Assembly (NCBI GenBank): GCA_000155695.1 | Contig: DS990592.1 | Span: forward strand, 4,747,331-4,811,330 | Reading direction: 5' to 3' | DNA from: Verrucomicrobiia bacterium DG1235 | GTDB taxonomy: Bacteria; Verrucomicrobiota; Verrucomicrobiia; Opitutales; Opitutaceae | Length of the DNA stretch: 64,000 nt | Shown: positions 5,505 to 8,587 of the stretch, piece after piece | How positions within the stretch are numbered: the stretch's first letter is position 1 | How the letters are laid out: each line of letters opens with the position of its first letter | Notes under the pieces: model-generated | Told to the model about the DNA's origin: nothing | Database searches by the model: none | What the model saw: only the letters and a program-made list of their open reading frames with translations | Program-made: the position numbers and the translations under genes

Positions 5505-5566
5505 GCCCACTACCGAGGAGCGAAGTGACGACACTTGAGAAGCGAAGCGCCGAAACAATTGCTCAG
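5505..5566. repeat. Uninterrupted copy of the IS110 target repeat
   Basis: The sequence GCCCACTACCGAGGAGCGAA and the following 40 bases (to AACAATTGCTC) are present here without interruption. The same sequence is split by the IS110-family element: its left part ends at 6802 and its right part starts at 8430. It contains the small hairpin AAGTG-ACGA-CACTT. It therefore serves as an in-window empty site. Confidence 0.9.
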
Positions 5567-5597
5567 ATGAGCATGGATGGGATTTGTAGTTGATGTT

Positions 5598-6672: not shown

Positions 6673-6819
6673 GGTGGATTGGGTTGGGTTTGTTTTTTGC
6701 CCACAGATTACTCAGATGAGCACGGATGGGATTGATTTTGGTTGAAAGGGTTGGGGTTGGAAGGTTGTGGAATTGGGTTGTTGTAGTATGCCCACTACCG
6801 AGACTTCTGAGCCTTTCCA

Positions 6820-8136
6820 TCAAGTAAAAAGTAGATTGTTTTCATCGTCGATAAATCCGAGTTCTTTCATCTTGCCGATGATCGGCGAACCGCGTTTGGC
6901 GAGGCTTCTCACGTAGGCGGCCTCGTCGTACTGGGTTCGGTCCTTCCAGCAGCGATAGAGGATTCGAGTCCACTTGAACGCCAGGGCGCGCTTGGCCACG
7001 CCGACGCGCTTGCCGCGTTGCCTCATCAGCTCGTAGCAAGCCTTGGCCCAAGGGCTGAACTGGATCGTCAGTCCAGCCCATTCGTGGAAGCTTTGCCTCA
7101 GGAACTTATGGCAGCGCCCCCTCATGAAGGTATAGTTCTTCGTCCCGCTTGAGACCTTGATCGGGGCGATTCCTACGTAGACCTGGAACTTGGAGACGTC
7201 CTCGAAGCGTTCCCTGTCGCTGCCGAAGGCGGCGGCAAGCCGAGGGGCCATCGCTGCACCGGCCCCGGGAAGCGTCGCGAAGAGATCCTTCTCGGGATGG
7301 CTGCCGAAGCAGGACTTAACGCATTTGGCTATAGCCCGTATCTGACTGTTCAATACGCTCAGCTGCTCGACGCAGTTGCCCAGACGCAGGGCCCCAAGCT
7401 CCTCGAGCAAGGGGTCGGAGCTTAGCTTCGAGCTCGACCGCAACGCGGCGACGCGTTTGGCGATAGCCTTCGCGCTGCGGCTGCCGTTGGCGTAGTAGAA
7501 GCGTTCGAGTGTCTGGTCCTTGGACTTGGAGAGCTTCGAGTAACAGGGCCATCTGCGCAGGAACGCCAAGCTGATCGGGTCCCAAAGCTCGTCGCCGACC
7601 ATAGGCAGGGCCTGCGGATAGTACTCGCGTAGCAGGCTTTTGAGACGCAAGGCCACCGCGACGCGCTGTTCGACCAGCTCCCGGCGATGCGCGTTTAACG
7701 CGTCGAGGCGACGGCTGGCCTCGTCGCCCTTGAGCACTGGCTTGATGCGGTCGCGATGAGTGAAGAGCATGCGAAGCAAGGCGCTTGAGTCGATGGGGTC
7801 GCTCTTGGCCCCGCTGGGATGGAGGCTCTTGCGGAACCTCGCCGCGGCAAGGGGATTGACCGCGAACAGGTCCACGAACTCGAAGTCGAGCAGCAGGTTG
7901 ACCAGAGCCCCCTTGCTCTGCTCGCTGAGGATGGCGACTCGCCCTTGCCCGACGCGCTCGCGCAGCCCGGCCATGAACGCGTTCATGGAGCCTGGGTCGG
8001 CGGCTACCTCGAAGCGCTGCTCGCTTCGAGATCCCGCGGGAAGAAAATGTATGCAGTTGGTCTGGTGTCCCCAGTCCACGCTAGCGTAAGCGGCATGCGA
8101 GGACTGGTTGCAAAACGGGTTATTCAGCTCAATCAT
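6820..8136 (-). CDS. IS110-family DEDD transposase/recombinase
   Basis: 438 aa. The N-terminal RuvC-like DEDD domain has D21 (SVDWG), E72 (LSEQSKG), and D113 and D116 (GAKSDPID), followed by a helical coiled region at about 140-270. The C-terminal Transposase_20 domain begins at LFATLPGAGAAMAPRLAAAF and contains PIKVSSGTK, where the catalytic serine of this family lies. The domains are full length with no frameshift, so the enzyme is probably active. In this family it works with an element-encoded RNA that reads target and donor DNA. Confidence 0.96.
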   Translation of the reverse strand: MIELNNPFCNQSSHAAYASVDWGHQTNCIHFLPAGSRSEQRFEVAADPGSMNAFMAGLRERVGQGRVAILSEQSKGALVNLLLDFEFVDLFAVNPLAAARFRKSLHPSGAKSDPIDSSALLRMLFTHRDRIKPVLKGDEASRRLDALNAHRRELVEQRVAVALRLKSLLREYYPQALPMVGDELWDPISLAFLRRWPCYSKLSKSKDQTLERFYYANGSRSAKAIAKRVAALRSSSKLSSDPLLEELGALRLGNCVEQLSVLNSQIRAIAKCVKSCFGSHPEKDLFATLPGAGAAMAPRLAAAFGSDRERFEDVSKFQVYVGIAPIKVSSGTKNYTFMRGRCHKFLRQSFHEWAGLTIQFSPWAKACYELMRQRGKRVGVAKRALAFKWTRILYRCWKDRTQYDEAAYVRSLAKRGSPIIGKMKELGFIDDENNLLFT

Positions 8137-8429
8137 GACTATGCTTTCAGTTATTCTTTTGCGAAGGCAGGCGCCGCGGCGAAGCGCTTATTGGATGGAT
8201 CCGCACGGTCCATTCTTCTTGAGCATTCGTTTTGCGGCGTCTTTTCCGCCCCGCCGGCGCTCTCGGTAAATTCCTCGAGGGAAACCAAAGCGACAGCCGT
8301 TGTGCGGGACGGCCGACGCCACAAGTTTCCCTCAGAGCTCCGCCGCGGCAAGTTGTTAACAATGCTGCTGCGGCGAGTCTTGTCCTTCGGACTCCTCGCA
8401 GCATTGATTAACAACTTGGACAGGCAATA
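8137..8429 (-). ncRNA. Candidate bridge RNA in the IS110 left end
   Basis: Read on the minus strand, the leader folds as a 5' hairpin (arms 8398-8417 and 8351-8368) and two hairpins with internal loops. Hairpin 1 has inner arms 8325-8333 and 8277-8285. The 3' side of its loop (8262-8268) reads UACCGAG, complementary to the target strand CTCGGTA at the right junction. Hairpin 2 has inner arms 8209-8213 and 8195-8199. The 3' side of its loop (8187-8193) reads CAAUAAG, complementary to CTTATTG at the element's left end. The 5' sides match less well (AGAAG against the right end, GCUC against the left target). Transcript ends are not defined. Confidence 0.72.
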
Positions 8430-8472
8430 AGGAGCGAAGTGACGACACTTGAGAAGCGAAGCGCCGAAACAA

Positions 8473-8587
8473 TTGCTCGAATGGGCACGAATTGGATATT
8501 GGGTTTGGATTGATGCTTTGCTTGGCTTTTTGTCAGGTCGGCGTTGCCGATTAGGTGCCTCTGCGAGGCGTTAGGTTTTGGTTGATG
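8473..8587. repeat. Dispersed ~115-bp repeat, copy 2
   Basis: TGCTCGAATGGGCACGAATT through the paired hairpins TCGGC-GTT-GCCGA and GCCTC-TGC-GAGGC to GTTAGGTTTTGG. It follows directly on the right half of the repeat that the IS110 element interrupted, so the host repeat array was the landing site. Confidence 0.88.

What the first reader, a model, noticed from the sequence alone, without database searches (positions are those of the whole stretch)
6801..8431. IS110-family element with a readable bridge RNA: 7-nt guides match target and donor
The leader 5' of the transposase folds into a 5' hairpin and two internal-loop hairpins, the layout known for IS621 bridge RNA. In the first loop the 3' side (8262-8268) is complementary to CTCGGTA at the right target junction. 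In the second the 3' side (8187-8193) is complementary to CTTATTG at the element's left end. Both matches include the CT core, lie in the expected order (target loop then donor loop) and on the expected side of each loop. The 5'-side guides match less well: AGAAG for the donor, only GCUC for the target. If correct, this element's target specificity can be read from its sequence.
Basis: partly seen in the sequence, partly recalled or inferred. Interest (0 to 1): 0.9.

Follow-up and report, generated by a model that had tools for sequence, protein, structure and literature searches.

The report
RNA-guided jumping gene targeting repeats
This is a mobile DNA element whose own small RNA appears to choose where it inserts, a short repeated sequence between genes, and it and some close relatives seem to read the left half of that site at a looser distance from the cut than the studied examples do.

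Summary
The finding is real. Window 6801-8431 is an IS110-group insertion sequence with three copies in its genome, all with right flank CTCGGTA. Homologues support them: right-target guide and flank agree at 127 of 140 positions over 20 elements (best of 20,000 permutations 99), and donor guides agree with the element ends. Compensatory changes in 17 left ends support the two-loop fold, though the window itself fits only 20 of the 30 consensus pairs. One correction: the left-target guide is GUCGCUUUG (8294-8286), not GCUC. It pairs 9 of 9 (one G·U) beside the core at copy 2.

The mechanism is thus a known one, bridge-RNA-guided recombination as in IS621. The target is a REP-like dispersed repeat with an empty copy 1.3 kb away.

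One feature differs. At two of this element's three copies and in relatives L006, L007 and L037 the left-target match lies 2-5 nt from the CT core, yet reaches 9 of 9. These elements share a transposase clade (90/93). In 17 of 19 others the best match has no spacer. I read this as loosened left-target spacing. It rests on six sites and no experiment.

The parts
6801..8431 (-). IS110-group element, both CT cores included
   Evidence: three genomic copies with identical ends
6820..8136 (-). DEDD recombinase (transposase), 438 aa
   Evidence: PF01548 and PF02371; E72, D113, D116, S330 invariant and D21 nearly invariant in 18 homologues
6796..6802 (-). right target CTCGGTA with CT core
   Evidence: same at 3 of 3 own copies, L006 and L007
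6803..6811 (-). left donor CTCAGAAGT at the right end
8425..8431 (-). right donor CTTATTG at the left end, with CT core
8137..8429 (-). left non-coding end, 293 nt; predicted bridge RNA about 8418 to 8173
   Evidence: transcript not shown
8349..8418 (-). 5' stem-loop
   Evidence: fold; similar hairpins seen by eye in homologues
8341..8349 (-). 5' arm GCCGCGGCG of a stem enclosing both loops
   Evidence: both arms also in L006 and L007, not found as such in L089
8173..8181 (-). 3' arm CGCCGCGGC of the enclosing stem
8236..8320 (-). target loop hairpin; stem GGCGUC/GACGCC and CCGUCC/GGGCGG
   Evidence: arms complementary in the window and, with changed bases, in L007 and L089
8286..8294 (-). left target guide GUCGCUUUG
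   Evidence: homologous loop position; copy 2 flank 9 of 9 with one G·U
8271..8283 (-). apical stem-loop of the target loop, UUCC/GGAA
   Evidence: 4 of 4 pairs in the window, covariation in helix 4
8262..8268 (-). right target guide UACCGAG
8180..8229 (-). donor loop hairpin
   Evidence: CGAA/UUCG stem, helix 5, 98.5% paired; 4 of 4 in the window
8215..8223 (-). left donor guide CUCAAGAAG
   Evidence: 5 of 9 ungapped in the window
8187..8193 (-). right donor guide CAAUAAG
8435..8443 (-). left target of the window copy GTCACTTCG
   Evidence: pairs with the guide 9 of 9, two G·U
8432..8434 (-). 3-nt spacer CTC between left target and core
   Evidence: also present in empty repeats
8432..8497 (-). 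rest of the REP-like target repeat with adjoining repeated sequence
   Evidence: 91% match to the empty copy
5511..5583 (-). empty copy of the target repeat

Best explanation
A bridge-RNA-guided IS110-group insertion sequence. On excision its ends would join into a circle (right end-CT-left end) and the left end would be transcribed into an RNA of about 250 nt (inferred). The RNA folds into a 5' stem-loop, a target loop and a donor loop (supported by covariation in homologues). [quoted passage not shown] the donor loop pairs by CAAUAAG and CUCAAGAAG with the element's own joined ends (complementarity shown, binding inferred). The DEDD recombinase exchanges strands at the shared CT core without a target duplication (junctions fit). 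The site is a REP-like dispersed repeat. The right guide fixes the crossover; in this clade the left guide may pair 0 to 5 nt away from the core (inferred from six sites).
For: Exact ends in three copies, one target repeat, empty copies. Both domains, DEDD and serine columns; solved relatives ISCro4 and IS621. Fold: 81.4% of cells paired against 59.2% shuffled, 117 against 43 cells changed on both sides, 0 of 500 shuffles. Right target guide: 127 of 140, permutation maximum 99 of 20,000; unbiased scan of the left end. Left target guide in 24 elements: 0 of 20,000. Donor guides in 21 elements: means 6.71 of 7 against 5.03, and 6.71 of 9 against 5.88, 0 of 20,000 each. ISEsa2-like elements in viral contigs: 10 of 10 readable left flanks follow their own guide type.
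Against: The window fits 20 of 30 consensus pairs, L006 19, L007 15, L089 17; their target-loop stem lies in other columns, so most covariation comes from other relatives. The free fold hides guides. No promoter above shuffles across the window's joined ends: 149 of 300 shuffles score as high. Rfam holds no match. The left guide does not fit beside the core at the window copy. Guide positions were entered by hand, some with the flank in view.
Confidence: 0.93

Rival explanations
1. The right guide alone decides insertion in this clade. The displaced left matches are leftovers: the target repeats carry related sequence near the core, and the left guide tolerates poor fits.
For: CTCGGTA is strict at 5 of 5 sites while the left flank varies. 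Single copies of another element (G389, G285) also have poor left flanks: L042, L164 and L165 of 7 readable sites have no good match at the guide position.
Against: L006 and L037 match their own left guide 9 of 9 at a spacer, chance 0.0001 and 0.0003 with the guide position fixed.
Confidence: 0.35
2. The spacer bases are not part of the target but were carried in with the element, for example by an excision that took a few bases of an earlier left flank. Left guide and core would then be adjacent in the true empty site.
For: The same element sits at sites with spacer 0 and 3; no empty allele of L006 was found to decide it.
Against: For the window element, empty repeats without the element carry the CTC spacer (L131-L133).
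Confidence: 0.15
3. An ordinary IS110 element whose matches to the flanks are chance.
For: Either single 7-mer turns up in about 2% of shuffled left ends.
Against: Both in order: 0.0001; guide and fold tests in homologues.
Confidence: 0.01

Closest known systems
IS621 bridge RNA system (PMC11208160: outline, sections 5-8, 12, 21, part 1 of 43 and found passages; PMC11208158: found passages)
   Same: Long left end with 5' stem-loop, target loop then donor loop; 5' guide pairs with the bottom strand, 3' guide with the top strand; CT core; REP-type target; DEDD recombinase.
   Different: Transposase similarity found only in the C-terminal part, E 8.6e-5. Right guide matches 7 nt here; IS621 uses 4, with longer ones reported in orthologues. 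In IS621 the left guide includes the core; here it is displaced at most sites. Enclosing stem and longer 5' hairpin.
ISCro4 transposase (solved structure 9t56; listing only)
   Same: Nearest solved relative by sequence, E 1.7e-6.
   Different: RNA and target not compared.
ISEsa2-like IS110 elements (plasmids, viral contigs)
   Same: About 36% transposase identity, same two-loop RNA and guide logic.
   Different: Left guide runs up to the core in 10 of 10 viral-contig sites and in L167 and L170.
ISEc21 and seekRNA (PMC11187229: outline and section 12)
   Same: IS110 type with upstream non-coding RNA, bottom-strand match 5' of the top-strand match; natural retargeting in ISMch6.
   Different: Different target; sequences not compared here.

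Membership tests
IS110 family | DEDD RuvC-like domain PF01548 | tested here: met
   E 4.8e-20; D21, E72, D113, D116
IS110 family | C-terminal domain PF02371 with conserved serine | tested here: met
   E 5.4e-14; S330 invariant in 18
IS110 group | RNA-bearing left end longer than right end | tested here: met
   293 against 17 nt
IS110 group | CT core at both ends, no target duplication | tested here: met
   junctions of three copies and empty repeats
IS621-type bridge RNA | 5' stem-loop, target loop, donor loop | tested here: met
   covariation in 17 left ends; window fits 20 of 30 consensus pairs and has its own stem arms
IS621-type bridge RNA | 3' guides pair with right target and right donor, core included | tested here: met
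   7 of 7 both
IS621-type bridge RNA | left target guide pairs up to and including the core | tested here: not met
   adjacent at copy 2 only and without core pairing; displaced 3 nt at copies 1 and 3
IS621-type bridge RNA | promoter across the joined ends | tested here: inconclusive
   TTGATG-17-TATTGC is present, but the best-scoring pair is equalled by 149 of 300 shuffles; 5 of 21 elements have TTGACN-17-TATAG
IS621-type bridge RNA | RNA expressed, bound by recombinase and needed for recombination | not testable with these tools
   needs RNA sequencing and an assay
IS1111 group | bridge RNA in the right end | tested here: not met
   right end only 17 nt
IS1111 group | subterminal inverted repeats of 7-17 bp | not tested
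   no search made

The most novel reading that the evidence does not exclude
A clade of IS110 recombinases has uncoupled the two halves of target recognition: the right guide sets the crossover, and the left guide pairs with the bottom strand at a variable distance (0 to 5 nt) from the core, so the target is a two-part site with a flexible spacer.
Probability: 0.4. Interest if true: 0.7.

Novelty: new variant of a known kind. Interest (0 to 1): 0.5.

Why it matters
Bridge-RNA recombinases are being developed as programmable tools for rearranging DNA, and in IS621 the left guide runs into the core. If a natural clade tolerates a spacer there, the rules for choosing targets and judging off-targets are looser than assumed, and a recombinase that leans on a 7-nt right guide is a useful contrast to IS621. 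The relatives also give examples of natural retargeting to REP-like and attC-like sites.

Tried and rejected
GCUC as left target guide: rejected, it lies outside the loop. Rfam: no match at E up to 1. Single-protein search of genome contigs: one relative; of viral contigs: none; with the alignment A3: 18 loci. Empty alleles of L006 and copy 2 in 8 genomes of the genus: other copies of the L006 repeat lack the whole 41-nt unit, and copy 2 has similarity on one side only in the joined comparison. First placement of the target-loop apical stem was one column off, 18.5% paired; corrected to 76.5%. With no spacer allowed the left guide gave 5 of 9 for the window copy, 5 for L006, 6 for L007 and 4 for L037; the spacer was introduced after seeing this.

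Left out of the 20-, 21- and 24-element tests: L042, L162, L164-L166 (extra copies, shown only), L163 (ends not found), L019, L024, L029, L031 (extra copies), L089 (left end partly N, right end lost; used in fold and tree). Homologue loci not entered because an end or flank could not be read or I did not try: L008, L010-L017, L020-L022, L025, L026, L028, L030, L032, L035, L040, L041, L045-L058, L092-L100, L118-L128, L130, L168, L171, L176-L178, L230-L235. In one search, 12 loci were printed; L219 has no left end and L229 is of another type, leaving 10. Several elements share a right flank (window, L006, L007; L039 and L044; L090 and L091), so they are not independent; the permutations kept such pairs, which works against the result.

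Full report
What is there. Window 6801-8431 is an insertion sequence read on the minus strand. Its gene (8136-6820, 438 aa) has both IS110 domains. In 18 aligned homologues E72, D113, D116 and S330 are invariant and D21 nearly so; reading these as the DEDD and serine residues rests on recalled motifs and on the alignment to IS621. The nearest solved relatives are the ISCro4 and IS621 transposases, matched in the C-terminal part only, E 1.7e-6 and 8.6e-5. The genome holds three copies: the window copy, an identical one and one with eight substitutions, all in the gene. The left end is 293 nt and the right end 17 nt, the IS110-group layout.

Target. In transposase orientation the right flank is CTCGGTA at 3 of 3 own copies, at the 90% relative L006 and at the 62% relative L007. 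The genome also carries empty copies of the target, a REP-like repeat GTTTCGGCGCTTCGCTTCTCAAGTGTCGTCACTTCGCTC-CT-CGGTA; one lies 1.3 kb from the element at window 5511 and has the same bases on both sides of the insertion point. The junctions fit insertion at a CT core with no further duplication. L006 sits in a 41-nt unit of similar build that interrupts a larger dispersed repeat of its genome. REP sequences as IS targets are known (PMC1525189, abstract read).

RNA. An unfitted MAFFT alignment of 17 left ends supports a target loop and a donor loop. With the structure I named, 81.4% of cells pair against 59.2% in shuffles, 24 of 30 pairs have a change on both sides, and 117 cells are changed on both sides against 43; 0 of 500 shuffles reach these values. 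Versions slid by 1 to 3 columns give 19 to 52 such cells. Most of the structure came from the same sequences, so some excess over slid versions is expected. Row by row the support is uneven: the window fits 20 of the 30 pairs, L006 19, L007 15 and L089 17, while several others fit 30 of 30. In these four the target-loop stem lies in neighbouring columns, with complementary arms in each: CCGUCC/GGGCGG in the window and L006, CCGUUUCGG/CCGAAACGG in L007, CCGUUCC/GGAACGG in L089. A stem enclosing both loops is paired 6 of 6 in 11 of 17 rows; the window has 3 of 6 there, but carries GCCGCGGCG and CGCCGCGGC in a corresponding place.

Guides. Scanning the whole left end without choosing a position, the right flank's complement is matched 7 of 7 in 7 of 14 elements, 6 of 7 in 6 and 5 of 7 in 1; of 172 cross pairs 7 reach 7 of 7 and 46 reach 6. 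At the loop position 20 elements give 127 of 140, and the best of 20,000 permutations gives 99. I entered those loop positions, some with the flank in view, which favours own pairs; the scan does not have this bias, but shows that a 6 of 7 match somewhere is common by chance. Left target guides in 24 elements: 0 of 20,000 permutations, with or without a spacer. Donor guides in 21 elements: right side mean 6.71 of 7 against 5.03 in cross pairs, left side 6.71 of 9 against 5.88, 0 of 20,000 each. A further set: ISEsa2-like elements in viral contigs fall into two types, guide GUGCCA with flank GTGCCA (L218, L220, L226, L227) and guide GAGCGA with flank GAGCGA (L221-L225, L228), 10 of 10 with a readable left flank and without a spacer (read by eye; the second type was already represented by L167 and L170).

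The left target guide is GUCGCUUUG at 8294-8286. At copy 2 it pairs with GTCGCTTCG directly before the core, 8 identities and one G·U. At copies 1 and 3 it pairs with GTCACTTCG and GTCACTCCG, 3 nt from the core, 7 and 6 identities and the rest G·U.

The unusual feature. With the RNA position fixed and a spacer of 0 to 6 nt allowed, the chance of the observed identity in shuffled flanks is 0.0001 for L006 (9 of 9, spacer 5), 0.0003 for L037 (9 of 9, spacer 2), 0.002 for copy 2 (8 of 9, spacer 0), 0.015 for L007 (7 of 9, spacer 2), 0.037 for copy 1 and 0.13 for copy 3. With G·U counted these are 0.004, 0.002, 0.004, 0.057, 0.005 and 0.009. In the transposase tree these elements fall in one clade with L089 and L038, support 90/93, just below the tool's own mark of 95/80. 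L038 has no spacer and only 5 of 9; by eye it fits with one bulged base. Outside the clade the best match has a spacer in 2 of 19 elements, L034 and L169. A Fisher test, run with 4 of 5 against 2 of 18, gives 0.008; the table holds 19, and the clade was noticed after the spacers, so the value is descriptive. Against the reading: L037 and L038 have interrupted transposase frames and may be old; some copies of a gap-free element outside the clade also sit at poor left flanks (L042, L164, L165). For the window element the spacer is present in empty repeats (L131-L133), so there it belongs to the target; for L006, L007 and L037 this could not be checked.

Mechanism. Shown: boundaries, repeat target, conserved fold, agreement of guides and sites. 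Inferred: transcription from the joined circle, complex formation, strand exchange at CT, and that the left guide works at a distance. The window's joined ends hold TTGATG-17-TATTGC, not above shuffles; 5 of 21 elements have TTGACN-17-TATAG.

Known or new. The mechanism is that of IS621 and the seekRNA elements (Closest known systems). The IS621 paper predicts a bridge RNA in 85.7% of IS110 elements, so finding one is expected. In the held open-licence library no paper holds all of IS110, bridge RNA and Verrucomicrobi-, or Pelagicoccus, insertion sequence and IS110, or the four terms on left target guide and spacing. The displaced left target is the part I call a variant.

Noticed in passing
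L033, L090, L091: IS110 relatives in other Opitutales-like genomes inserted at right flank TTGGTTRGSC, which looks like an integron attC end; their right target guide AACCAA matches it. The attC reading is recalled, not tested.
   Followed up: partly
L043, L161, L162, L164, L166 and relatives: A multi-copy element in genomes G285 and G389 sits in a palindromic repeat ending GGCGCT-CC-CAG; left guide AUCGGCGCU matches 9 of 9 at L161. L042 has a different left flank and core.
   Followed up: partly
L218-L228: ISEsa2-like elements in viral contigs show natural retargeting: two left-guide types, each beside its own matching flank, with the same right flank TGAAGCGGAC except L225 (TGACGCGGTC).
   Followed up: partly
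L006 flanks, G005 contig C3: The L006 copy lies among locally repeated segments, and its 41-nt REP-like unit interrupts a larger dispersed repeat whose other copies lack that unit.
   Followed up: partly
L089: Close relative with a changed target loop (UUUCGCGAG), which predicts a right target CTCGCGA; its right end is lost, so the prediction cannot be checked there.
   Followed up: no
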